Positions 17,640-53,586 of a stretch of DNA of 54,307 bases are shown in pieces. The translations under genes were made by a program, and so were the position numbers. Positions within the stretch are counted from its first letter, which is position 1. Every line of letters begins with the position of its first letter. The notes beneath the pieces are model-generated. The model had not been told where the DNA came from. It made no database searches and was given only the letters and a program-made list of their open reading frames with translations. The stretch comes from Bacteroidaceae bacterium. Its GTDB lineage: Bacteria > Bacteroidota > Bacteroidia > Bacteroidales > Bacteroidaceae. The DNA lies in the NCBI GenBank assembly GCA_017547205.1, contig JAFYQH010000030.1:1-54307 (forward strand). Direction: 5' to 3'.

Positions 17640-17712
17640 GCCGAATTAGCTCAGTTGGTAGAGCAACTCATTCGTAATGAGTAGGTCTGGGGTTCGAGTC
17701 CCCGAATCTGAG
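17640..17712 (+). pseudogene. Degenerate tRNA-Thr(CGU) copy
   Basis: The D arm, anticodon arm (ACTCA, loop TTCGTAA, TGAGT; anticodon CGT) and T arm are perfect and identical to the downstream copy over 64 bases. The 3' acceptor strand reads AATCTGA and fails to pair with GCCGAAT at four of seven positions, including the terminal pair. I therefore judge it non-functional. It is closest to the promoter, so the intact copy relies on the same transcript. Confidence 0.7.
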
Positions 17713-17854
17713 AGCTAATTTCAGCAAAGAGTTCTTTTACAATAAATTATCCCTTGCTCGCTTAAATAGGCGGGACAAAATCGGGACAATGCCGAATTAG
17801 CTCAGTTGGTAGAGCAACTCATTCGTAATGAGTAGGTCTGGGGTTCGAGTCCCC
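17640..17854 (+). repeat. Direct repeat of 64 bases (tRNA-Thr body), probable attachment-site history
   Basis: Bases 17640-17703 and 17791-17854 are identical. The 78-base spacer (17713-17790) contains the short tandem motif CGGGACAAAATCGGGACA just before the second copy. This could be left by an earlier integration at the same tRNA or by tRNA duplication. No matching third copy is visible at the right side of the prophage, so its other end is probably beyond the window. Confidence 0.6.
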
Positions 17855-17863
17855 AACTCGGCT
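17791..17863 (+). tRNA. tRNA-Thr(CGU)
   Basis: This 73-base cloverleaf has acceptor strands GCCGAAT and ACTCGGC (one A-C mismatch), anticodon CGT in the loop TTCGTAA, and a TTCGAGT T loop. CCA is not encoded. The prophage integrase begins 80 bases downstream. This is the usual layout when a phage integrates at a tRNA 3' end and restores it, so this copy probably forms the left attachment site. Confidence 0.85.
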
Positions 17864-17942
17864 CAAAGGTTTATTTTTAACAGTTAAACACTTATGGAAC
17901 AACAATTTAGTAGCATTTCTAAACCCAAGAAATGTAAAAAAA

Positions 17943-19106
17943 ATGTTGTCTATCGACATCAGTGAAGTCGTTTATTTCACTTTCCCCAAACTCTACACCG
18001 GCAAAGAATGGTACATTGGCTTTATGGCCTATGATCCGGCGCAGAAGAAGATGCGAAGAAAGCGCATCAAGATAAATCACATTGAAAAAATTTCCGACCG
18101 CAAGAAGTATGCACGAGGTTTAATCGAGCGCCTAACTGTTCAATTAGACAGAGGCTGGAATCCTTGGGTGCAGAAAGAGCTGCCATCTGCTTACAAAGCA
18201 TTTGACGATGTCTGTGCAGCATATATTCACGCTTTAGACAAAGGATTATCCGAGAATTACTATCGAGAGACCACGCATAAGGAATATTCTTGTATGCTGC
18301 ACACGCTCCAAAAATGGAACAAGACACGCATACAGCCAGCATACTACATCTATCAGTTTGATAGGGATATGGTCCTCGAGTTCCTTAACTACGTCTATGT
18401 AGAGAGGGACAACAGCCTCGTGACTCGAAATAAATACCTAATATGGTTGTCATCGTTCTCGACGTGGCTTGTTCAACGCCTTTTCTTAAAAACAAAGCCA
18501 ACTGACGGTATCGCAAAAATCAAGAACAAAGGGCGCGAAAAAGACCGAGACCTGATAACTGATGAGGAACTGAAGAAACTACACGATTATCTCGAGGCGA
18601 ACAACAAGCATTTCCTCTTGGCGTGTTACATCTTGCACTATGTGCTGATACGCCCCAAAGAAATGTCATATCTCCAGCTAAAGGATTTTTCTCTAAAAAA
18701 ACAAACAGTCGTGCTCTCAGGCGAGTACACAAAAAACAGACGCAATGCGGTTGTTACTTTGCCCGCAAAAGTCATCCGCCTAATGATAGAACTTGGAACT
18801 TTCGATTCACCAGACTCATATTATCTATTCTCAAGCGGTTTTCGCCCAGGCAAGAGCCATATGCACCAAGTCCAATTCCGCAAGTATTGGGCGAGTCATA
18901 TTCGCCCATATATGGGCTGGGGACCACGAAAGAAGTTCTATTCGCTGAAGGATACAGGTATAACCAATATGATTCGTAACAATATGGATATCCTATCAAT
19001 TCGAGACCAGGCACGACACTCAAGCGTGCTCATGACGGATATGTATACACCTGCTGATTTGAAGGAAGCCAACAAACTATTGCTGAATTACGAGGGTGAT
19101 TTATAG
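17943..19106 (+). CDS. int: Phage tyrosine integrase
   Basis: This 387-residue protein has the catalytic layout of site-specific tyrosine recombinases: Arg237 in LIRPKEMS, Lys264 in EYTKNRR, His359 in ARHSSVLMTDMYT, and the nucleophile Tyr368. The second box reads YSLKDTG (333-339) where most family members have H-x-L-R; Lys336 takes the usual Arg place. The N-terminal part (about 1-190) is an SAM-like, core-binding region with YFTFPKLYTGKEWYIGF. It stands 80 bases downstream of the tRNA and is the only phage gene on the plus strand. An upstream ATG at 17894 is in another frame and meets this start at a run of eight A residues. Confidence 0.92.
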   Translation: MLSIDISEVVYFTFPKLYTGKEWYIGFMAYDPAQKKMRRKRIKINHIEKISDRKKYARGLIERLTVQLDRGWNPWVQKELPSAYKAFDDVCAAYIHALDKGLSENYYRETTHKEYSCMLHTLQKWNKTRIQPAYYIYQFDRDMVLEFLNYVYVERDNSLVTRNKYLIWLSSFSTWLVQRLFLKTKPTDGIAKIKNKGREKDRDLITDEELKKLHDYLEANNKHFLLACYILHYVLIRPKEMSYLQLKDFSLKKQTVVLSGEYTKNRRNAVVTLPAKVIRLMIELGTFDSPDSYYLFSSGFRPGKSHMHQVQFRKYWASHIRPYMGWGPRKKFYSLKDTGITNMIRNNMDILSIRDQARHSSVLMTDMYTPADLKEANKLLLNYEGDL

Positions 19107-20580: not shown

Positions 20581-21939
20581 TTACAAATAAAGTTCGGGCA
20601 TCAAAATCTTTCTATACGCACCGCTCTTGACTTTCTTTTTAGTTATCTCAAGTGGTCGATATTGCTTTTTAATAACGAACTTTTTATAGTCTTTTCCCAT
20701 ATAGCAATACTGCCACCAAATAGGATTTACCATTTCATATAGTTTGCGTCTAATCTTGAATGTTCTATAATGTATACTCATTCCAAGATATGAGTTCATA
20801 GAACCAACGAACTTTTCAAGATATTGTAAAGCCTCCCCATTTTCTGCAATTTGATTGTAAAATGATAATTTATAGCACATTCTACCTCTTGTGCGGTTGC
20901 TTATATAAGTTCTACCAGGTTTTATCATTGCTCCGACAAATAAGACTCCGTTGCGCACAGGCTGAATGTAGATTTTCTTTGGATGTAAATTAACAAGCAA
21001 CTGTTCCTTGAGGAAATGCTTGAGTTCTGGAACAAAGGCCACCAACTCCTCACGAGTCGGCATGAGTATTATGAAATCATCAACAAAGCGAAGATAATGC
21101 TTGTAGCCTTTTACATTCAATATCCAATGGTCAAGAACAGATGCATAGAAGTTTGCAGATAGCTGAGAAGGCAGATTGCCGATGGCGCAACCTTTCTCTT
21201 TTGGTTGGCCAAACAGCGTTTTCTTGGGTGGTATATGGCTCCATTTCTCAAGGCTGCTACATCGTATGCAGTTGTCCTGTGGAGAATGAAATACGAGGCA
21301 TTGAGTAGTGTATAACAAGCAATCAATATCATCACCTTTGTAATGGTCACGAATGAATATATCTAGCATCTCATATAGCAGGGCCTTGTCCATAGACATA
21401 AAGAACCCCTCTATATCGAAACGTCCTACCCACCAATCCGGGTGTTCATCAACCATCCTTTGTGCCTCTTTGACTGCAACGTGTACGCCTTGTCCTACGC
21501 GGCAGTTCTTCGAGACATCACCTTGCTCTGTAAACCGTTCCTCAAATAGCGGGTTCACTCGCAATGCCCACCAATGGTGCACAATTCTATCAGCAAAATC
21601 TGCGGCAAAAACCTCTCGATATACGGGCCAATCAACAACAAAGCTTTTGGATTTATCAGGAGAATAACACGCATGCCGAATTGTATTCCATTTCTTAACT
21701 ATTTCTCTTTGACATTTTGGAAGAAAATGAAGATAGTCATTGCTTGACTTCTTTTTTTTACTACAGTCTTCAAAAGCCTCTACGAATGAGCTAAATGAAA
21801 TGTCATAGGCTACTTTGTCATCTGCGAGGGCAACAGCTCGAACTCGATTACTATTATTACGATTGTTGTTGTTGTTGCTATTACCATTATTCATATTCAC
21901 GTTCCAAGACTGAATGTACCTACTTAGTTGTTCCTCCAT
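20581..21939 (-). CDS. DGR reverse transcriptase with the template repeat inside its reading frame
   Basis: This 452-residue protein copies the TR RNA into adenine-mutated cDNA. Reverse transcriptase motifs are in order: RFDIEGFF (173-180, catalytic Asp175), IGNLPSQLSANFYAS (253-267, the LPSQ-like motif 4 of DGR enzymes), and RFVDDFIIL (284-292, Asp287 and Asp288). Residues 10-39 are encoded by the TR and are Asn-rich. The ATG at 21939 is the only usable start: a stop codon lies ten codons upstream, and no ATG, GTG or TTG occurs in frame between the TR and the conserved domain. No Shine-Dalgarno is visible, which is usual in Bacteroidota. Order avd-TR-RT is that of Bordetella phage BPP-1. Confidence 0.95.
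   Translation of the reverse strand: MEEQLSRYIQSWNVNMNNGNSNNNNNRNNSNRVRAVALADDKVAYDISFSSFVEAFEDCSKKKKSSNDYLHFLPKCQREIVKKWNTIRHACYSPDKSKSFVVDWPVYREVFAADFADRIVHHWWALRVNPLFEERFTEQGDVSKNCRVGQGVHVAVKEAQRMVDEHPDWWVGRFDIEGFFMSMDKALLYEMLDIFIRDHYKGDDIDCLLYTTQCLVFHSPQDNCIRCSSLEKWSHIPPKKTLFGQPKEKGCAIGNLPSQLSANFYASVLDHWILNVKGYKHYLRFVDDFIILMPTREELVAFVPELKHFLKEQLLVNLHPKKIYIQPVRNGVLFVGAMIKPGRTYISNRTRGRMCYKLSFYNQIAENGEALQYLEKFVGSMNSYLGMSIHYRTFKIRRKLYEMVNPIWWQYCYMGKDYKKFVIKKQYRPLEITKKKVKSGAYRKILMPELYL
21823..21912 (-). repeat. DGR template repeat (TR)
   Basis: These 90 bases match the variable repeat at 22486-22575 at 78 positions. All 12 differences fall on adenines of the minus-strand TR. It contains 33 adenines and 13 AAY (Asn) codons, nine of which are altered in the VR. 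The last 24 bases, from CGAGTTCGAG to CTCGCA, are identical in both and are the expected homing-initiation end. Flanking sequence diverges at once on both sides. Confidence 0.97.
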
Positions 21940-21990
21940 TGCTGAAGGGAGATACCCAAATAAACCTTAAAGTTAGCTGCTCGCTCCCAA

Positions 21991-22362
21991 TCAGCGTTGC
22001 CGATTGGAATTCTGGCTTTCAAGCGTGCGATTACGCCAGCCTGTGGCTTGCCTGCCTATGCTGTCTGCAAGTTCGAGTATATCCGAAAACTTGCGAATGT
22101 CTATCTGCCGCTCATCTCGACAAATCATCAGCATCAATCGTAGAGAACTGTACTTTACATCAAATTCATTCAGGAAATGTACCCTTTGTTCTTTATTGCT
22201 ATTTGCACGTTGCAACAGTTCACAACAGTCTATACCCGTCATAACCATACGCTCTGCAAAAGAGTATCTATAGAACTTATCAAATTGCATTCTTGCTCTC
22301 AGAATGAGCTGAAGCAATGAGTACATATCCTTATATATTTTAGTTTCTTGCGCGAGTGCCAT
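21991..22362 (-). CDS. avd: Avd-like DGR accessory protein
   Basis: This 123-residue protein is all-helical and basic, with segments IYKDMYSLLQLILRARMQFDKF, FAERMVMTGIDCCELLQRAN and IGRQATGW, resembling the four-helix Avd family. In BPP-1 Avd binds the reverse transcriptase and template RNA as a pentameric barrel. I chose the ATG at 22362 over an upstream TTG at 22386, because the TTG overlaps a promoter -7 box. The gene ends 51 bases before the reverse transcriptase start. Confidence 0.88.
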   Translation of the reverse strand: MALAQETKIYKDMYSLLQLILRARMQFDKFYRYSFAERMVMTGIDCCELLQRANSNKEQRVHFLNEFDVKYSSLRLMLMICRDERQIDIRKFSDILELADSIGRQATGWRNRTLESQNSNRQR

Positions 22363-22383
22363 TTTATGCTTAAAAAGTACGGA

Positions 22384-22391
22384 CAAAGGTA
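22384..22391 (-). promoter_or_regulatory. Candidate promoter -7 element for avd-TR-RT
   Basis: TACCTTTG on the minus strand, 22 bases before the avd ATG. It lies directly against the T run of the terminator that follows the target gene. No TTTG is found 19 bases upstream; that position falls in the terminator stem. It would let the mutagenesis unit be transcribed independently of the tail-tip genes. Confidence 0.5.
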
Positions 22392-22426
22392 AAAATAAAA
22401 AAATAAAAATCCCCCTTACGGGGGAT
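22391..22426 (-). terminator. Terminator after the DGR target gene, also a candidate DGR hairpin
   Basis: ATCCCCC/GGGGGAT (22409-22426) forms a 7-bp stem with a GTAA tetraloop on the minus strand. A T-rich tract follows (22410-22391). This is a good rho-independent terminator. DGR target sites often need a stem-loop shortly downstream of the VR, so it may serve both functions. Confidence 0.8.
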
Positions 22427-22428
22427 AA

Positions 22429-22449
22429 TATCTCTTCAAAAAAGAGATA
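22429..22449 (-). repeat. 8-bp stem-loop downstream of the VR
   Basis: TATCTCTT and AAGAGATA pair perfectly around a five-base loop, 36 bases after the VR end and 21 bases after the target stop codon. Size and place fit the hairpin or cruciform that helps target recognition in BPP-1. Confidence 0.5.
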
Positions 22450-22470
22450 AAGAGTTAAAGGGCTAAAGAG

Positions 22471-23256
22471 CTAATAAGGTTTATTTGCGAGGGCAACAGC
22501 TCGAACTCGATGACTACTATTACGAAGGTTGTAGAGGTTGCTATAACCATTAGGCATATGCACGGTCCAAGACTGCGTTGAATTAATCTCTGTTGAACTC
22601 CAATACCAATCACCAGTGATTGTGCCACCATTGAAAAACTTAGTTAAGAAAGCGTTTATCTCGAGCTTATATTCTGCTATAAGGCGATCTACCGCAACGC
22701 TGGGTAGAAACCATTGCAAAGGGTCATGGGCATTGGCCTTGTAGTTCCAAGCGGCTTCGCAAGCAGGAACACCTTTAATATTCTGCGAGTCCGTTTTTCC
22801 CGCTTGTTGTTCGATGGCTGCCAATGTATCCTCAAAACCATAGCCTACTTCGTACAAACCGACATTACCTGCTCCATAGTTCTTCACATTTTTTAGGTCT
22901 ACGCCATAAGCACCAAACTTAAAAGTTGCACCTCCATCCGAATTGACACAATCTGCTGCTGCAATGATAAATTCCATCTTCCGTGCACGTATCGTTACAC
23001 CAAGTTTACTATACTGCGCTTTTCCGTTCGCAGACATTGCAGACCACTCCTCGCCCGTAAAATGGCTAACTGTACCGTCGGATATCTTTACGCACGCAAT
23101 GCGTAAATCACGCAAGCCACCAGCCCATTTGATATACTCTTTAAATTCTGACATCGGAGTCTCAAAAGTAACTTCTGGGAAACCAATCTCATTCAATGCT
23201 TGTACTTGCATCTCCTTATTCAAGCGTAGGAGTAACGCTTCTTTATTTGTACTCAT
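22471..23256 (-). CDS. DGR target protein: C-type-lectin-like tail-tip adhesin carrying the variable repeat
   Basis: This 261-residue protein is a probable receptor-binding tip. The C-terminal domain has WYWSSTE (about 217-223), then the VR-encoded segment starting QSWTVHMPNG and ending RVRAVALA, then NKPY. The WSSTE...RVRAV pattern is that of DUF1566/Fib_succ_major-type C-type lectin folds, the fold used by known DGR targets such as Mtd. The N-terminal part (MSTNKEALLLRLNKE) is shared with the upstream paralogue and may attach to the fibre. It follows the paralogue by 17 bases. Confidence 0.88.
   Translation of the reverse strand: MSTNKEALLLRLNKEMQVQALNEIGFPEVTFETPMSEFKEYIKWAGGLRDLRIACVKISDGTVSHFTGEEWSAMSANGKAQYSKLGVTIRARKMEFIIAAADCVNSDGGATFKFGAYGVDLKNVKNYGAGNVGLYEVGYGFEDTLAAIEQQAGKTDSQNIKGVPACEAAWNYKANAHDPLQWFLPSVAVDRLIAEYKLEINAFLTKFFNGGTITGDWYWSSTEINSTQSWTVHMPNGYSNLYNLRNSSHRVRAVALANKPY
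22486..22575 (-). repeat. DGR variable repeat (VR)
   Basis: The last 30 codons but four of the target gene. Relative to the TR, Asn codons became Thr, His, Pro, Tyr, Leu, Tyr, Leu, Ser and His through twelve adenine substitutions, to C, T or G. No difference is seen at any non-adenine TR position. This is the footprint of past mutagenic homing. Confidence 0.97.
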
Positions 23257-23273
23257 ATGAAAATCGTTTATCG

Positions 23274-24074
23274 TTAGAACTCTTCACAAACTGCGCGGAC
23301 AAGGTAAACCGTATCTTTATTACTCACTACAATAGCCCCCCAGTGAATGGAGAAAGCAAAGCCACCTGAAGCGTCATATTCAGTGCTACTCCAATAATAA
23401 TGGGTATTATCATTGAATGAAAGTTTACACTCTGCATTCCAAAAATACTCAAGTGCCTCTTGTATCTGTTCCTTACACCTATAGGCGATAATCCACACCC
23501 CCAATCCCGGGAGATGCCAATCGCTTGTATCCTCAATGCCGTCATACTCCTGTGTGTAGGCTTTATAAGCTTTGGTCATCTCTGCGGCAGGGGCACCTTT
23601 CACTCCTTGTGAACCTGTAGTCCCTGAAAGTTGTGCAATGATGGCCTCTGTATTAGCCGCACCGGCAAAGTCATTGTAAGCGGCTCCGAGACTGCGGTTG
23701 TCGAGTTCTCCAACATTTACACGGTTACTAAAGGGAAGCGTCATACCTCCTTCAGCACTGGTGCAATCAGTTGCCGCTAAAACGAACGAGTGACCATAGG
23801 CTCTGACGCGGAGACCACGCTTTATAAACTTTGCCTTGTTGGCATTCGTCAAACTATCCCATTCCTCACGTGTGAAGTAATGGTATGTCTTGTCATCGTA
23901 TCTCTGCACAGCGAGGCATATATCAAGCAGGCCACCAACCCACTTGATATATTTACCGAACTCCGATGCCCGGCTGTTCTCTGTGACATGCTTCAGGCCG
24001 ACAGCGTTAAACGCTGCCGCCAGTTCTCTCTTGTTCTTGCGTAACAAGGTTACGCTCTGTTCCTTTGTACTCAT
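23274..24074 (-). CDS. C-type-lectin-like tail-tip protein, paralogue of the DGR target without a VR
   Basis: This 266-residue protein is homologous along its length to the downstream target: start MSTKEQSVTLLRKNK, middle EFGKYIKWVGGLLD, and end YYWSSTEYDASGGF ... LVRAVCEEF. Its C-terminal codons do not match the TR at the nucleotide level, so it lacks the homing signal and should not be diversified. It begins two bases after the tail-fibre stop codon. It may be a fixed tip protein, a structural partner of the variable one, or an earlier target that lost its VR. Confidence 0.8.
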   Translation of the reverse strand: MSTKEQSVTLLRKNKRELAAAFNAVGLKHVTENSRASEFGKYIKWVGGLLDICLAVQRYDDKTYHYFTREEWDSLTNANKAKFIKRGLRVRAYGHSFVLAATDCTSAEGGMTLPFSNRVNVGELDNRSLGAAYNDFAGAANTEAIIAQLSGTTGSQGVKGAPAAEMTKAYKAYTQEYDGIEDTSDWHLPGLGVWIIAYRCKEQIQEALEYFWNAECKLSFNDNTHYYWSSTEYDASGGFAFSIHWGAIVVSNKDTVYLVRAVCEEF

Positions 24075-24076
24075 AA

Positions 24077-27000
24077 TTAGTAAATTGTATTATTGATATC
24101 CTGGTTATCCTCTGCATAACCGGCAAGATACTCGTCGTAGGTCTCACCGTTGTAATACACGAGGTGCTCTGCTATATTCTCAAGGGTTACAGCCTCCACC
24201 TCCTCAACACCGCCGTAGGCCTCGTTATTGACCTGATCGATGAGATTGATGAAAGCTTCAATCACAACGAATATGGTTATCTCTGAGATGCCCTGCTCGA
24301 TGGCCTCTATCTCATAAGCCTCGCGGATCACTGTAAGCTGATATGTGCCGCTGATTACAGGCTTTGCAACCTTGTTGCCATCGGCATCTTGGCCTGCGAC
24401 CTTCTGCTCGATGATGGCGAGGAGTTCTGCACCGTCACCCTTCAGCACCTGGCCTACAATACGCACCATGGCGAGCAGTGGAGTTTCTTCCTGGTTCTCG
24501 AGGATGGTCTTCATCATCACCACAGCATTGAGTTTCGGCGAGTTCTCGAGACGGAGACGCTGCACAGCCTTTAGTGATGATATCTGCAATCCCGTTGCAG
24601 AGTTCAGTGCGGTAAACGTAAGCTCTGGCAAGCCCAAGAAACGAAGCTCAACCATCGTATCGGGCAAAGCAATATCGTTGATTGGCGAAGTCTCCGCTAT
24701 TGTAATACTCTCGAGTGCACTGCCCTTGGCGTTTATATGCTCGATGCGTGGACACTTCGATGCGTCAAGACTTTTGGCACCAGTATTCCTGATGTCGAGT
24801 GTCTTGAGGAATGGAAGATCGCCGAGCATATATGAAGTGAGTTTCGCATATCCCATTGGGCGCTCGATGTGGCTGTCACCACCTGTGATGATAGTCTCAA
24901 CGAGGCTCATAACAGAGAAATCAAAGTTCTCACTCAGTGTCAAGGCAGAGAGGTCTATGCTGCTCATTCTATCAGCTTGGTAGATGTAGAGCAACGCGCC
25001 CTCATCTTTAGCGAAGTTGGTAAATGTGTAGCTTTGACCGCCCTCGAGGTAACAACTCTCGGAGAGGTTGCCCGAAGCATCGTTACCGACACCGAAGTAA
25101 CCTGTTGCAGCAGCAGTGATGGTGATTGTTGCATCGGCACCACATGCGATACGACCTGACAAGACTCCACTGAAGAAGTCTCCCGTCTGGTAGTATCCGT
25201 CACGAATACGCCAACGAGTGCGAATGAATGCCGGGAGAGATGTCAAGCCAAGGCCCTGCAGAGCATAGAAGTATATCGCATCCGATGTAGCGGTGTACTG
25301 GATATACTTGCGGTAGCCATCGTAAGAGCTTACCACCTTCGGCCACACAAGCTGGCGCTTGGTGCAGTAGAAGTAGATTGCTCCATCAGGAGAGAACGGT
25401 TTCATCATTTGGCCGTCCACCTCGATCTGGCAAGAACGCATAGCGGCGATAACAGTGCGGAGGTCGATTGCAGTGCCATCGGCCAACAGCACTTCTTGCT
25501 GTTCACGGCAGCACACCCACAAGATACTGTTCCATCCCGCAAATGGGTTGGTATAGTCATCTGTTGAAGGCTTGCCAGGATCTACCTCGGGGTCTGTATC
25601 GCAACCGCCGTCGTTGTCCTTGTCGTTCACACCGTCGGCATCGTAAATCTTGTTGAGATACATTATAAGAGCATTCTCCGAGTAGATACCGCCTCGCACG
25701 CTTGCTCCGTTCTCAAGGAACCACATAGGCTGCATATTCTTTGCCTGTTGGTCTTTTCCACACGCGTAATCCGTAAAGCCGTAATAGCTCATCACGGATT
25801 TTGGATTCGCGTGCAGATGGAGCTTGGTGCGCCAATTTGTAGCCCACTGCGCGTTAATGCTCTTGTCACAAGTGCTGGCAAAGGCGAGCATATCATAGAG
25901 CTGGTATGGAACTTTCTTGCCGAGTGCATAATCGATGGCCAACTGGTCATTGTCCACCATAGATTCAAAGTAGTATGTCCAGGCAGGGAAAGTATCACCC
26001 GAAACCTCGCCCTTGTCGATGAGTTTCTGCACCCAGCTTGATTTCATCGTAGATGGTGCCATCATCTCAGCGACAGAGGTAACACCTCGCCACCAGCACA
26101 TACCTTGGTAGACAAGAAGCTCAAAGCCCTCAACAGGGTTCAAGACATCGCCCTCGACAACCCATTTACCGTTCTTCTGGTACATTGAGCCTGTGGTATT
26201 CTTCCACTGGCCATCAACGTAACGCATAAAGCGGTAGTTGCGTCCACAATAGAGAGAAAGGAGGTAAGGCATATCGGTGTCAAGGCCCGAAGTAGCCTTA
26301 AATCTTGTTTCAATCTGGTCGAGAGTCTCACCATCCGCACCGATGAACTCTACAAAGCTCTCATCCTGATAGTTCAAACAGCCGAGGTTGTAACCAGGGG
26401 TGTTCATAAAGCCGAGCGCAGTCTGCTCGCCTTTGTCTTCCTTCCAGTTGCCTCGTGCCTCGAAATACACATTCTGCAAGGTGTCAGAGGTTGAACGATA
26501 GACGCAAACAGGGTGGTTTGCTGTAGAATGGTTCATCTGCAGCCCCTCTATGTGTATGTCTCCGAGGTCATAGGTACCATCGAAGAAACGTTGTGCAGGG
26601 GTGAGATAGTCGCCACCGAGAGAACGATATGTGTAGTTCATCATATCGCAAGTACCGCAGTCATTCACGCCGCTTGAGTCGGAGAAATCGATCTTGACGG
26701 TGATGATATTGACAGGTATTGTATTCTCGCCGACACGAACCTTCTTCTTCGCAAATAGTGCGTATGTAAGTATTGCATCTGCATTGGTGTAGTCCGGGAA
26801 CAGAGGCTCAACACTCTTGGCCTTGTCAAGGTAGTAACGTGGGTTCTTCTTCGGTCTCTTGGCCGATGTTGTTCCTTGACGGCGCTTGCGTACTCCACGC
26901 GCTACGAATGAACGCCAGGGGCGCAATGGGTCGTAATAGTAGAGGTCAATGCTGAAGTTGTCGCTGGTAGATGTACCACCGTCAAACTCATTGAAGCTCT

Positions 27001-30000
27001 CTTCAGAAGCGACCTCCACGACATAGGCTATGCCGCGTGCGTAGAGCAATGTGGCCGAAGGTCTCAACATCGTTGTGCCTTCAGCTGTCTGCGAAACAAG
27101 CACATTCTCGAAATCGAACTCTTTAACCATCAGTTCGGTGTTGGTAAGGCGAACGAGATAGTTCTTGTGCGCTTGCGCCCACTCAAAGTATGTATTCCAG
27201 GCACAGAGGTTGAAGAGATAGAGGTCGCCCATCGTTCCGTTGAACTTGATGCAGTTCTCCTGGAACAGATTACCGGCACCGCCGACATAACCGATGTTGC
27301 CCACACGCTCGCCGTCGAGGTAGAGAACGATCATCGAATACTTGATACCGCCACGCTCTACATAGATGTTTGTAGGCTCTACAACGACGGCAACGGTATG
27401 TTCCTTACCCTGTTCGTATGAACGTTCCTCACGGGTGCGTACACCGTTCTTGCAGTATATGCCGACCTTTGAGCCGGTTACATAGAAACCAGCTCCGGCG
27501 CTTTCATCATAACACTCGATGAGCTTTGCACTCTTATCCTTTACATTCTTCGATGCAAAGGTAAACTGTATCGCGCCACCTGTCGCCTCAAGCATAGCTG
27601 AGCCGAACATATAATGGTTGAGTGTAGCCGTCACGTTCTCAGCAATACGGAGACAGTTCTTGCCGAGAAAAGTACCGAAACCATTAGATGTGTAGTTGGC
27701 CCCGGACAATTTCAGTTCATAGCCATTCGACTTGATACTGTGGTCGGCTTCATCATTGGAGCGACCAGAAAAATCAAAGTCATAAATGGTACCAGCTGTA
27801 AGTTCCGCGTCGATAGCGGAGCCATCAATGCGGACTGTAATCTCATCGCTCGCTACACCATTAACAACAGCCTTGTAGGTTATCTGCTGTCCGTCAGCAA
27901 AACCCTTTATCTGTTGTGATATAGTGTAAGTGCGGCTGTTGAGAGCAAGCAGCTGGGTGAACTGGTTGCCGTTGGCCAACACAGCAACGTGCGACTGCAC
28001 TTTGCCCGGCGCATAGACAGCGACATCGAGGCTCAATGTGTCGTAAAGCCTGATGGTGCCATTATTAGCATCATCATAGCGGATAGAGACAATAGGTGTA
28101 GTATTGTCCTCATCAACGACCATTATGGCCGAGTAGATGGTATTTCCCTTGGTACCTGAAGCGATATCAGTACCCTGCACGCGAATCGGATAGCTTCCGT
28201 GTGTGAGCCCGAGCTCGGTTGGGCGGATGGTGACAGAGTGTGTAAAGCTATCGTTTACGACAGCAGTTGCAAGCGGTTGCCATTCGCCACCGAGTTTGAT
28301 ATCAATCTGGGCCGATATACCTTTATCGCTCTGATTGTTGGCGAACTTATACAGCGGTACAGACACACTTGCTGTGCCTGGTGTAATTGGATTGTCGGCA
28401 GAATACTGCAGAACCTGCACAGAGGTACAAGTAACATCGACTGCAGTTACAGTGATATTCTTGCTTCCACTCGCACCTGTATCATCGTAGGCAACAAGCC
28501 TGTATTTCTTTGAGCCTGCAGCTGTAAAGAACTGTGTAAAATCGATAGGAAAACTATAGTCATTCAGATCTGCAGAGCTCTGCTGATTGACGGTCTGCGA
28601 GAACACAGTGATATTTGTGTCGCGGTCCACAATCTCAATGCGCTCGATGCTGTTTTCCGTCTCGACTCCAGTTGCAGATGATACCGAACGGATGGCCGCA
28701 GATGTGGCAATATTCGCGCCGTAGGCGCCATAGAGAGGAGAGTTCTTGAATGCGATGGCCACGATGGTTGCGCTACCTCCGCCAGTGCCTGTGCCGACGG
28801 GGAACTGCACCTCATCGCCGACGGTATCGCCGTCAGCATTCTGCATTGATATCTTGACAACACCCTCTGTCTCGGTATCAACAACAAGGTTTGCAGGTAG
28901 GTGATGACGTGCTCCTTCAGCCGAGAAGGCTTTGCCTGTGCCCACCTCGGGAGTGTCCGAAAGTTCAATCCTTGAGCCACCACCGAACTCACTCCAAAGA
29001 GCCGGCTCGTTGAAATCGGCAATCGAGCCTTGAAATTGCCTTGTCTCCATCTTGTTCTCAGCCACCTTGTAGCTGATAACAAGACCTTGCTTGGCATATG
29101 TAAGGCCCTTCTCTTTTTGGTGTGCCAAAAGAGCCGTCAAAGCACTCTCAAGAGTGTAGAAATTACCGAATGTAGGCGCACCTACAATATTATCAATGAT
29201 AATAAAAGGCTCGGATCCTGCGGCCAACGAACCGAAGTCTTTCCAGTTCTCGGGATTTATCCACTGCTCCTCGGTAAGAGACTTGCCCACGAACTGATAC
29301 GTTTTCCACGTTCCTGCAGCAATCTCGAAGGAGAGAATCAAGCCCAATGCGGCCTTTTTCTTAGTCCATGCAAGATGTACAGCAGACTTGCCGACATTCT
29401 CCGTGTCACAAAGCGAATAGTATCCACTGATTGGCATTTCTGTTGTTACATTGTAGATGTTTCCGACGGAGGAGCCGCCGAAGTCCTTCCAGTTATCTAA
29501 GTTCTCGAATGACTGAATTGTGTTCACACCGATGAATTGCTTTGCTACCCAACCATCCTGTGAGAGATACACTACGACCATACCAGCCGACAAGCGCCCA
29601 GCATTGACAAGATTTAAGACAACTGCCTCAAGGTCATACACCGTTGTCGGTGTCTTTTTCCATGTATTGACATTTACAACAGTCAAGTTTTGCGATTGCG
29701 AGCTGCCTAGCAATGATGAAACCTGTTGCTCGAGCACAACACCGCGACTGCCAGGGAAAGCTGTGTTTGCAGTCTCTCCCAGCGTGAGGTCAGAGCCAAT
29801 AGCTGCCAACTGAGAGCCACTCCAACGGTAGCATTTACCATCATCTTTACAAAGAAAAACCTTGCCCGAAACAGGGATATAATTGCTTTGAAAGGACTCC
29901 TCTCCAGGCCAATTACTAAAGAATTTATTATCTTCATAATTATGTGCCACGAATCTATTCAGCGTAGAACTGAAATATACAGAAATTGGTATTCCTCCTG

Positions 30001-30646
30001 CCATTTCGGTTATAATGCCAGGCTCAACATTAGTTTCGGAAGTAAAAGCCTTAAATTCAACAACATCATCAACAAAAGCAGGAAGGTTTGCTGCTGGTAC
30101 CTTGCCCATCGCATCGAGTGTAGCAATGCCTGAAGGCCTACCTATTTGGCTGTAGATGTCGGTAACATTCTGATAGAGTCCCTCGATATTGGTCACATTC
30201 TGAAGGACTGTTGTTTCAACGGAAGCCAATCCGTTCTGCAGCGATGTTACCGTGGTGTTGATTGAAGCAATCGAATGGTTTGCCGAATCTGCGCTGTTCT
30301 GAGCGGTATTGGCCGCATTCACAGCAGAATTGAGAGCAGTCCTCAACTCTGTCAGAAGAGATGGAGTCAGTAGGCCAGCATTAGCGGTAGAAGCCGCAGG
30401 AATCGTAATGTTCAGCGGAACTTCAGTACCGTCATTGAGCCTCTTCTTCATCGAAATGATGAAATTGCTCTCCGAAGCCTGATGGCCCAAAGAAGCGCCG
30501 TCAATTTGCGCCTCTGGCATCGTGTCTATCAATGCCTGGATGAGAGACACGAACAAACCACCAATTCGCGAAGCTGAGTTCTCATGCTCTTCTGTTGCAT
30601 CTCGCACAGTAGCTGCAAGAGGAAGTAGGTTTGTTAATTTACTCAT
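24077..30646 (-). CDS. Large tail fibre protein
   Basis: This 2189-residue protein is the longest of the phage. The N-terminus (MSKLTNLLPLAATVRDATEEHENSA) resembles fibre-attachment segments of other Bacteroidales phages. Coiled-coil and repeat-like stretches follow (100-170), then repeated modules with DFGG/WKDFGS motifs (about 380-560), Ig-like regions around 650-950, and a LamG-like region around 1000-1150. A long C-terminal part includes Leu-rich stretches near 1960-2060. It is followed directly by the two lectin-like tip genes, so it likely carries them. Domain limits are judged by eye. Confidence 0.85.
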   Translation of the reverse strand: MSKLTNLLPLAATVRDATEEHENSASRIGGLFVSLIQALIDTMPEAQIDGASLGHQASESNFIISMKKRLNDGTEVPLNITIPAASTANAGLLTPSLLTELRTALNSAVNAANTAQNSADSANHSIASINTTVTSLQNGLASVETTVLQNVTNIEGLYQNVTDIYSQIGRPSGIATLDAMGKVPAANLPAFVDDVVEFKAFTSETNVEPGIITEMAGGIPISVYFSSTLNRFVAHNYEDNKFFSNWPGEESFQSNYIPVSGKVFLCKDDGKCYRWSGSQLAAIGSDLTLGETANTAFPGSRGVVLEQQVSSLLGSSQSQNLTVVNVNTWKKTPTTVYDLEAVVLNLVNAGRLSAGMVVVYLSQDGWVAKQFIGVNTIQSFENLDNWKDFGGSSVGNIYNVTTEMPISGYYSLCDTENVGKSAVHLAWTKKKAALGLILSFEIAAGTWKTYQFVGKSLTEEQWINPENWKDFGSLAAGSEPFIIIDNIVGAPTFGNFYTLESALTALLAHQKEKGLTYAKQGLVISYKVAENKMETRQFQGSIADFNEPALWSEFGGGSRIELSDTPEVGTGKAFSAEGARHHLPANLVVDTETEGVVKISMQNADGDTVGDEVQFPVGTGTGGGSATIVAIAFKNSPLYGAYGANIATSAAIRSVSSATGVETENSIERIEIVDRDTNITVFSQTVNQQSSADLNDYSFPIDFTQFFTAAGSKKYRLVAYDDTGASGSKNITVTAVDVTCTSVQVLQYSADNPITPGTASVSVPLYKFANNQSDKGISAQIDIKLGGEWQPLATAVVNDSFTHSVTIRPTELGLTHGSYPIRVQGTDIASGTKGNTIYSAIMVVDEDNTTPIVSIRYDDANNGTIRLYDTLSLDVAVYAPGKVQSHVAVLANGNQFTQLLALNSRTYTISQQIKGFADGQQITYKAVVNGVASDEITVRIDGSAIDAELTAGTIYDFDFSGRSNDEADHSIKSNGYELKLSGANYTSNGFGTFLGKNCLRIAENVTATLNHYMFGSAMLEATGGAIQFTFASKNVKDKSAKLIECYDESAGAGFYVTGSKVGIYCKNGVRTREERSYEQGKEHTVAVVVEPTNIYVERGGIKYSMIVLYLDGERVGNIGYVGGAGNLFQENCIKFNGTMGDLYLFNLCAWNTYFEWAQAHKNYLVRLTNTELMVKEFDFENVLVSQTAEGTTMLRPSATLLYARGIAYVVEVASEESFNEFDGGTSTSDNFSIDLYYYDPLRPWRSFVARGVRKRRQGTTSAKRPKKNPRYYLDKAKSVEPLFPDYTNADAILTYALFAKKKVRVGENTIPVNIITVKIDFSDSSGVNDCGTCDMMNYTYRSLGGDYLTPAQRFFDGTYDLGDIHIEGLQMNHSTANHPVCVYRSTSDTLQNVYFEARGNWKEDKGEQTALGFMNTPGYNLGCLNYQDESFVEFIGADGETLDQIETRFKATSGLDTDMPYLLSLYCGRNYRFMRYVDGQWKNTTGSMYQKNGKWVVEGDVLNPVEGFELLVYQGMCWWRGVTSVAEMMAPSTMKSSWVQKLIDKGEVSGDTFPAWTYYFESMVDNDQLAIDYALGKKVPYQLYDMLAFASTCDKSINAQWATNWRTKLHLHANPKSVMSYYGFTDYACGKDQQAKNMQPMWFLENGASVRGGIYSENALIMYLNKIYDADGVNDKDNDGGCDTDPEVDPGKPSTDDYTNPFAGWNSILWVCCREQQEVLLADGTAIDLRTVIAAMRSCQIEVDGQMMKPFSPDGAIYFYCTKRQLVWPKVVSSYDGYRKYIQYTATSDAIYFYALQGLGLTSLPAFIRTRWRIRDGYYQTGDFFSGVLSGRIACGADATITITAAATGYFGVGNDASGNLSESCYLEGGQSYTFTNFAKDEGALLYIYQADRMSSIDLSALTLSENFDFSVMSLVETIITGGDSHIERPMGYAKLTSYMLGDLPFLKTLDIRNTGAKSLDASKCPRIEHINAKGSALESITIAETSPINDIALPDTMVELRFLGLPELTFTALNSATGLQISSLKAVQRLRLENSPKLNAVVMMKTILENQEETPLLAMVRIVGQVLKGDGAELLAIIEQKVAGQDADGNKVAKPVISGTYQLTVIREAYEIEAIEQGISEITIFVVIEAFINLIDQVNNEAYGGVEEVEAVTLENIAEHLVYYNGETYDEYLAGYAEDNQDINNTIY

Positions 30647-53441: not shown

Positions 53442-53586
53442 ACGAAACTATGATTTTGTTGTAGCAAATGGCGAAATAAAAAACGGCCGCCATACCCGTT
53501 GCTACAACAAAATCATAGTTCACCCCGAAGGATAAAAGAAAATGTTCGGATACAGCGACCGCTATGTGGTACGCATAGTTTCGTAT
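53440..53586. repeat. Nested inverted repeats in the leader of the 53441 operon
   Basis: A perfect 22-bp inverted repeat (53446-53467 with 53499-53520) encloses 31 bases with a further 6-bp stem ATGGCG/CGCCAT. A 13-bp element (ATACGAAACTATG, 53440-53452) overlaps the left arm and recurs inverted at 53574-53586. More pairing is visible to 53660 (GGGCA/TGCCC; GGCATCGG/CCGATGCC). The left arm touches the ATG of the downstream gene, so the hairpin could block its translation. Confidence 0.75.

What the first reader, a model, noticed from the sequence alone, without database searches (positions are those of the whole stretch)
20581..24074. Complete diversity-generating retroelement in a tRNA-associated prophage
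Seen directly: TR (21823-21912) and VR (22486-22575) are both 90 bases, agree at 78 positions, and all 12 differences fall on adenines of the TR coding strand. Nine of 13 AAY codons changed. An Avd-like gene and a reverse transcriptase with FVDD and LPSQ motifs complete the set, in the order target-avd-TR-RT. Known: adenine-specific mutagenic homing in BPP-1 diversifies a C-type-lectin tail tip. Inferred: this phage varies its receptor-binding tip and has done so recently. With 33 adenines the TR can in theory specify about 4^33 nucleotide variants.
Basis: partly seen in the sequence, partly recalled or inferred. Interest (0 to 1): 0.95.

Follow-up and report, generated by a model that had tools for sequence, protein, structure and literature searches.

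The report
Retroelement with a guide-like RNA leader
A gut-bacterium prophage carries a genuine protein-diversifying retroelement, and its template RNA appears to bear a folded leader whose tip can base-pair with the edge of the gene stretch to be rewritten, which may be how this kind finds its target.

Summary
In detail: TR 21823-21912 and VR 22486-22575 differ at 12 of 90 positions, all TR adenines, beside Avd and a DGR-type RT. As a DGR it is a new member of a known kind in a tRNA-adjacent prophage. Several pairs of relatives show variation concentrated at TR-adenine sites of VR.

What looks new lies between avd and TR, at 21913-21971(-): a conserved RNA leader with a 6-bp stem paired in 60 of 60 cells, 5 of 6 pairs changed on both sides. 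The stem and a hairpin occur in 14 of 14 clade leaders checked; Rfam has no match above chance. Its tip (TAAGGTTTATTTG) is the exact reverse complement of the VR 3' boundary. Relatives keep this with unrelated sequence: 15 of 15 in L267, 12 of 13 in L332. The tip also pairs, usually more weakly, with the TR 3' boundary. I propose a guide that docks the template RNA at VR and sets direction. Structure is well supported; function is inferred; the feature was seen only in this clade. TR lies inside the RT frame with no non-coding spacer; such overlap is already classed in print.

The parts
21823..21912 (-). Template repeat (TR), 90 nt, 33 adenines; in frame inside the RT open frame
22486..22575 (-). 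Variable repeat (VR) at the 3' end of the target gene
21913..21971 (-). Conserved structured RNA leader between avd and TR
   Evidence: covariance model R1 match 51.1 bits (the window is one of the 10 building rows); covariation
21957..21969 (-). Guide element TAAGGTTTATTTG, reverse complement of the VR 3' boundary
22475..22487 (-). VR 3' boundary CAAATAAACCTTA (last 2 nt of VR plus 11 nt), pairs 13 of 13 with the guide; proposed IMH
21812..21824 (-). TR 3' boundary in the same register (proposed IMH*), pairs more weakly with the guide (5 WC + 2 GU)
21950..21955 (-). Stem A, 5' strand GTATCT
21916..21921 (-). Stem A, 3' strand AGGTAC
21933..21948 (-). Hairpin B of the leader (CCTTC / GGAGG)
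20581..21939 (-). Reverse transcriptase open frame, 452 aa, containing the TR at residues 10-39
21991..22386 (-). Avd gene (probable start near 22362)
22471..23256 (-). Target gene, 261 aa, VR at its C-terminus
23274..24074 (-). Target paralogue without VR; conserved syntenic twin
22409..22426 (-). Hairpin ATCCCCC-GTAA-GGGGGAT, 59 nt after VR, followed by a T run
17943..19106 (+). Tyrosine integrase
17641..17864 (+). Two tandem tRNA-Thr(cgt) genes beside the integrase
24077..30646 (-). 2189-aa phage protein (PHROG 14959, unknown function) next to the target pair

Best explanation
This is an active-looking diversity-generating retroelement that rewrites the C-terminus of a phage protein by adenine-mutagenic retrohoming. 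Shown by sequence: its template transcript carries, between avd and TR, a conserved folded leader (guide, stem A, hairpin B). The guide can pair with the 3' boundary of VR, and usually more weakly with the matching 3' boundary of TR. Inferred: within the template RNA the guide pairs with the TR 3' boundary and closes the template. On meeting the recipient it re-pairs with the sense strand at the VR boundary, next to where the 5' end of the antisense cDNA must anneal. This docks the particle at VR and gives TR-to-VR direction. The 3' flank of TR, a non-coding spacer in BPP-1, is here RT coding sequence.
For: TR/VR adenine pattern; Avd and RT families. Close clade relatives show VR change almost only at codon positions 1 and 2 (L028/L029 8,10,2 against 14,11,108 in the rest). 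Stem A: 60 of 60 cells paired, 5 of 6 pairs with both-side changes, covariation score reached by 0 of 500 shuffles, and RNAalifold on the leaders finds the same stem; 14 of 14 leaders keep stem A and hairpin B. Guide to VR boundary: 13/13 in the window, 12/13 L003, 13/13 L267 (15 of 15 over the longer stretch), 12/13 L332, 10/13 L181, with differing sequences. L267 was fetched after the pattern was first seen, L332 after L267. Permuting guides among 8 lineages with the register re-optimised each time reaches the observed total in 12 of 40320; 14 of 5040 with 7 lineages before L332. Duplex energy is better with the VR than the TR boundary in 10 of 13 loci, some of them close kin. The exact guide target occurs in the own, incomplete genome only at VR, apart from the guide's own complement. 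The leader model hits 13 of 99 sources at E<1e-6, all DGRs of this clade, and 4 of 399 family genomes, all at the DGR.
Against: Not general: over 62 representative DGRs the boundary signal is weak (7 of 62 at p<=.05, other windows 0-8; 6 of 62). L004, L009 and L341 pair only 6-7 of 13; L002, L164, L004 and L009 are not significant alone; in 3 of 13 loci the TR boundary pairs better by energy. Two of the five measures are weak or unremarkable: pairs with both-side changes 21 of 500 shuffles, pair types 399 of 500. A longer fold of 6 sequences returned the cis helix and a hairpin but not stem A. Synonymous constraint downstream of TR is not clear (2 of 19 pairs p<.01). BPP-1 tolerates change of the 4 nt after VR (PMC3240598, passages), so its mechanism need not include this. 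No experiment.
Confidence: 0.55

Rival explanations
1. The guide works only in cis: it pairs with the TR 3' boundary to close the template RNA for the RT. VR looks complementary only because its boundary must resemble that of TR for cDNA annealing.
For: Guide to TR boundary pairing is itself supported (0 of 20000 permutations in a nearly fixed register) and includes GU pairs; RNAalifold on 6 sequences pairs the guide with the TR boundary over 10 columns, 7 to 10 of them standard pairs per sequence; L164, L004 and L341 pair better with TR by energy.
Against: A by-product should pair worse with VR, yet VR pairs better in 10 of 13 loci by energy, perfectly in the window and L267 where TR does not.
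Confidence: 0.3
2. The inverted match is a pairing inside the target-avd-TR-RT messenger, or a duplicated protein-binding site, serving expression control rather than homing.
For: Both arms lie on one strand about 520 nt apart; a hairpin with a T run between them could end or modulate the transcript.
Against: The VR arm starts within 4 nt of the called VR end in 11 of 13 loci, which gene control does not demand; the sequences differ between L267 and the window beyond the first three bases, against a fixed protein site.
Confidence: 0.1
3. An ordinary DGR; the leader-to-VR complementarity is chance plus selection of examples, and only the leader fold is real.
For: Weak signal across 62 DGR representatives; I noticed the pattern before testing it.
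Against: L267 (15 of 15) and L332 (12 of 13) came from later searches, with new sequence in the same register.
Confidence: 0.05

Closest known systems
Bordetella phage BPP-1 DGR (mtd-avd-TR-brt)
   Same: Order target, avd, TR, RT; adenine mutagenesis; Avd; VR at the 3' end of a phage gene; an inverted repeat after VR.
   Different: BPP-1 has 144 nt between TR and brt, which fold and recruit bRT-Avd (PMC12875486, passages); here RT coding sequence follows TR at once. Hairpin 59 nt after VR with loop GTAA, against 4-34 nt and GRNA (PMC3240598, passages). The leader model does not hit BPP-1 (L266 among the 99 sources).
DiGReF structural group 3 (TR overlapping the annotated RT ORF; PMC3521204, section 13)
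   Same: TR overlaps the 5' part of the RT open frame.
   Different: The passages and section I read mention no shared reading frame, start-codon analysis, leader fold or guide.
Bacteroides phage DGRs (phage F2 L263, phage BS-TP1 L264)
   Same: Bacteroidota phage DGRs with related RT, 35% identity.
   Different: No leader-model match in L263 or L264.

Membership tests
Diversity-generating retroelement | TR/VR pair with differences confined to TR adenines | tested here: met
   12 of 12
Diversity-generating retroelement | DGR-type reverse transcriptase nearby | tested here: met
   PHROG 1423 'Reverse transcriptase' E 6.9e-64; FVDD, LPSQ motifs; matches BPP-1 brt at 23.7% identity, E 4e-15
Diversity-generating retroelement | Accessory protein Avd | tested here: met
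   bAvd E 3.2e-11 above cut-off; NCBIfam Avd model 38.1 bits, below its cut-off 80
Diversity-generating retroelement | Target with C-type-lectin-like variable domain | tested here: inconclusive
   Lcl_C E 3.9e-6 but 27.6 bits against cut-off 34.9; structure prediction switched off
Diversity-generating retroelement | Ongoing diversification | tested here: inconclusive
   Seen in relatives, not for this locus
BPP-1-type target site | GC-rich 7-10 bp stem with GRNA loop 4-34 nt after VR | tested here: not met
   7-bp stem present, but loop GTAA and 59 nt after VR
BPP-1-type template RNA | Non-coding spacer between TR and RT | tested here: not met
   Conserved RT core starts 21 nt after TR, same frame, no ATG, GTG or TTG between
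tRNA-adjacent prophage | Integrase next to a tRNA, phage structural genes, host flank | tested here: met
   right end lies beyond the contig

The most novel reading that the evidence does not exclude
A clade of DGRs finds its target by RNA guidance: the template RNA's leader base-pairs with the VR boundary, and the stronger pairing with VR than with TR sets the one-way flow of information. The IMH/IMH* difference in these elements would then be a difference in guide affinity.
Probability: 0.4. Interest if true: 0.87.

Novelty: new variant of a known kind. Interest (0 to 1): 0.7.

Why it matters
The way mutagenised cDNA retrohomes into VR is described as incompletely understood (PMC12875486, passages). 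A leader with covarying structure and a guide matched to the recipient edge makes a specific, testable answer for one clade, would give a reason why TR itself is not the recipient, and could let DGRs be aimed by base pairing in laboratory reporters.

Tried and rejected
Synonymous constraint in RT after TR, as a sign of an RNA spacer inside coding sequence: 2 of 19 sequence pairs at p<.01, both L003 against L012/L013, not independent; not claimed. Paralogue 23274-24074 as a second active target: rejected, because its C-terminus diverges mainly at third codon positions and its 3' end pairs only 7 of 13 with the guide. Guide pairing as a feature of all DGRs: not supported. In one search, with a cross-locus null, the boundary window gave 12 of 62 at p<=.05 and a control window gave 9; I judge that null inflated by composition and rely on the shuffles. 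The fixed-register permutations (VR 1, TR 0 of 20000; 9 lineages) use registers chosen for the own guide and are biased; the re-optimised ones are fairer (12 of 40320 for 8 lineages, 3 of 720 for 6, 1 of 24 for 4), and even they use lineages chosen partly after seeing the pattern. In one search (11 loci), L333 and L334 gave a higher-scoring unrelated segment, L337 had no TR/VR pair found, and L342-L345 showed no guide match in register. L011, L002 and L009 were left out of the permutations as near relatives of kept rows, L013 also out.

Print searches for a TR leader, guide or complementarity: (search listings), with passages read and one section. Handa 2018, Handa 2025 and Naorem 2017 are not held, and I saw nothing of Wu 2018; any of them could describe this.
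Full report
Observation. The window is a whole 54,307-base contig of a draft genome 83% complete. TR and VR were compared base by base: 12 differences, all at TR adenines, chance 1.3e-6. Avd and RT match their families. To the left lie host genes (carbamoyl-phosphate synthase, V-type ATPase), then two tRNA-Thr genes, then an integrase, phage lysozyme, the DGR, a 2189-aa phage protein, a head protease and a tape measure protein. Most other proteins tested in the phage part matched nothing. The prophage runs off the contig, so its right end was not seen.

Relatives. The RT (with TR) and its core were searched in genomes and viral contigs and phages. Of 133 loci with a readable RT core start, 112 gave a TR/VR pair (many are duplicates, several are copies of the window; 62 representatives remained after clustering 108 loci). 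Pairs of related loci were compared (18 pairs asked). VR differences at TR adenines: L213/L214 17 of 18 (19 differences in 9.2 kb); L007/L030 15 of 15; L212/L216 10 of 10; L012/L013 17 of 17; L205/L261 11 of 12; L189/L193 19 of 20; L181/L262 15 of 16; L220/L221 16 of 19; L193/L195 22 of 27; L212/L213 8 of 12. Seven pairs show no VR difference and are identical or nearly so throughout (L217/L218, L004/L006, L212/L226, L233/L257, L012/L029, L013/L028, L011/L027). L004/L005 (86.5% identical over 2.3 kb) gave 8 differences in the stretch, none at TR adenines; that alignment begins inside VR and the two TRs differ at 14 sites. L012/L013, of the window's own clade, have none in the 67-nt TR in a locus 89.5% identical. 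By codon position, VR differences among L028, L029 and L002 avoid third positions (8,10,2; 11,8,1; 11,10,1) while the rest of the gene drifts there; between more distant rows (window/L027 12,11,11; window/L028 16,12,15) third positions also differ.

Twin gene. A paralogue lies next to the target in the window and in each of 8 relatives aligned. The TR/VR scan found no repeat in it. Its C-terminus changes faster than the rest but with ordinary codon-position bias, so the DGR does not seem to write it.

TR inside the RT frame. In the window the RT open frame starts upstream of TR, TR is residues 10-39, and no ATG, GTG or TTG lies between TR and the RT core. In 62 representatives TR ends within 100 nt of the core in 54, the frame covers TR in 36, no start lies between in 24, and both hold in 18. 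BPP-1's open frame also runs back through TR although its annotated start lies after it, so an open frame alone proves little. In some clade members the only starts before the core are inside TR (L002, L004, L013). So TR is probably part of the RT coding sequence or holds its start codon, and the downstream RNA that BPP-1 keeps as a non-coding spacer is here RT coding sequence. The start codon is not settled. Overlap of TR with the RT ORF is already a class in DiGReF 2012.

Leader fold. An alignment of the avd-to-TR stretch showed a conserved box. In 10 leaders (A2) columns 17-22 pair with 60-65 in 60 of 60 cells; 5 of 6 pairs have both-side changes (21 of 500 shuffles reach 5); the covariation score is 0.756 against 0.305 shuffled, 0 of 500 as high; pair types are no more than shuffled (399 of 500); slid registers give at most 0.207. 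RNAalifold on A2 returns this stem and no other. On a longer stretch of 6 sequences it returned instead a helix of guide with TR boundary and a hairpin, without stem A. Checked one by one, 14 of 14 leaders pair 6 of 6 in stem A (two with one GU) and hold hairpin B of 4-6 bp (these leaders were found by alignment or model, so this is conditional; 10 are the rows of A2; hairpin B was read by eye first and then checked). Rfam gives one chance hit elsewhere at E 0.8. Model R1 finds 13 of 99 sources at E<1e-6, all in this clade and ten of them building rows or their copies, with two further places at E 1.6 and 4.3. It finds nothing in 24 other loci but one place at E 2.1, 4 of 399 family genomes, all five matches at the DGR, 1 of 354 order genomes, the own one, and 7 of 11 later loci at E 5.1e-6 or better: L331-L335, L337, L341 (L342 gave 0.041 and L345 0.24). 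Of these L331 and L333-L335 have leaders identical or nearly so to L181 and L164; L332, L337 and L341 are new. The other 7 loci lie on contigs already used.

Guide. The tip of the leader (21957-21969) is the exact reverse complement of 22475-22487, that is the last 2 nt of VR and the next 11. This was noticed and tested over all loci: strong in the window's clade, weak elsewhere. Locus L267, fetched afterwards by its Avd, shows 15 of 15 with different sequence at the same place before the same GGG box; the other 35 loci of that fetch score 4.6-10.2 against its 17.4. L332, fetched later still, shows 12 of 13. Full table (12 loci, pairs of 13 with VR and with TR boundary, each at its best offset): window 13 and 8, L011 11 and 7, L003 12 and 9, L013 11 and 9, L002 10 and 9, L164 10 and 8, L181 10 and 10, L267 13 and 8, L332 12 and 8, L004 6 and 7, L009 7 and 7, L341 7 and 7. 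Re-optimised permutation: 12 of 40320. In a fixed or nearly fixed register both boundaries pair above permutation. Energies: VR better in 10 of 13 loci, TR better in L164, L004 and L341 (that call adds L262, nearly a copy of L181).

Mechanism. Shown: complementarity, covariation, conserved register. Inferred: the guide closes the template on the TR boundary, then swaps to the VR boundary on the sense strand. PMC12875486 (passages) interprets its replication-direction data as cDNA pairing with a transiently single-stranded target; the guide would sit just downstream on the same strand, next to the cDNA 5' end. The TR boundary, matching less well, would not be a recipient. The likeness to intron guide pairing is recalled, not tested.

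Verdict. The DGR as found is ordinary. The leader and guide make it a new variant worth testing.

Noticed in passing
23274-24074: Target paralogue kept beside the target in all 8 relatives aligned; its C-terminus evolves fast with normal codon bias. Function unknown.
   Followed up: partly
22409-22426: Hairpin ATCCCCC-GTAA-GGGGGAT after VR; its 14-nt core is identical in the 9 window-clade loci (6 distinct), and a different GC hairpin stands there in L267 (sequence).
   Followed up: partly
L183:10548-11893: The relative prophage in G023 sits beside a tRNA-Ser with an integrase 34% identical to the window's, while Avd, target, paralogue and the end of the 2189-aa protein are 78-95% identical: the integration module was probably exchanged.
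   Followed up: partly
L236, L238, L246, L233, L260: Another DGR lineage shows CCAGTGA at the VR end and TCACTGG about 107-130 nt upstream of TR, perhaps an analogous element.
   Followed up: no
53446-53520: Perfect 22-nt inverted repeat arms 31 nt apart near the contig end.
   Followed up: no
L016, L022: Genome G016 holds two copies of an RT C-terminal fragment, 77% identical to window RT residues 365-451.
   Followed up: no
L021 (G018:C45:2775-2864): A TR/VR-like stretch in a 610-aa frame in a genome without another RT match; maybe an orphan target.
   Followed up: no
17641-17864: Two tRNA-Thr genes in tandem, 97% alike over 70 nt, beside the integrase.
   Followed up: no
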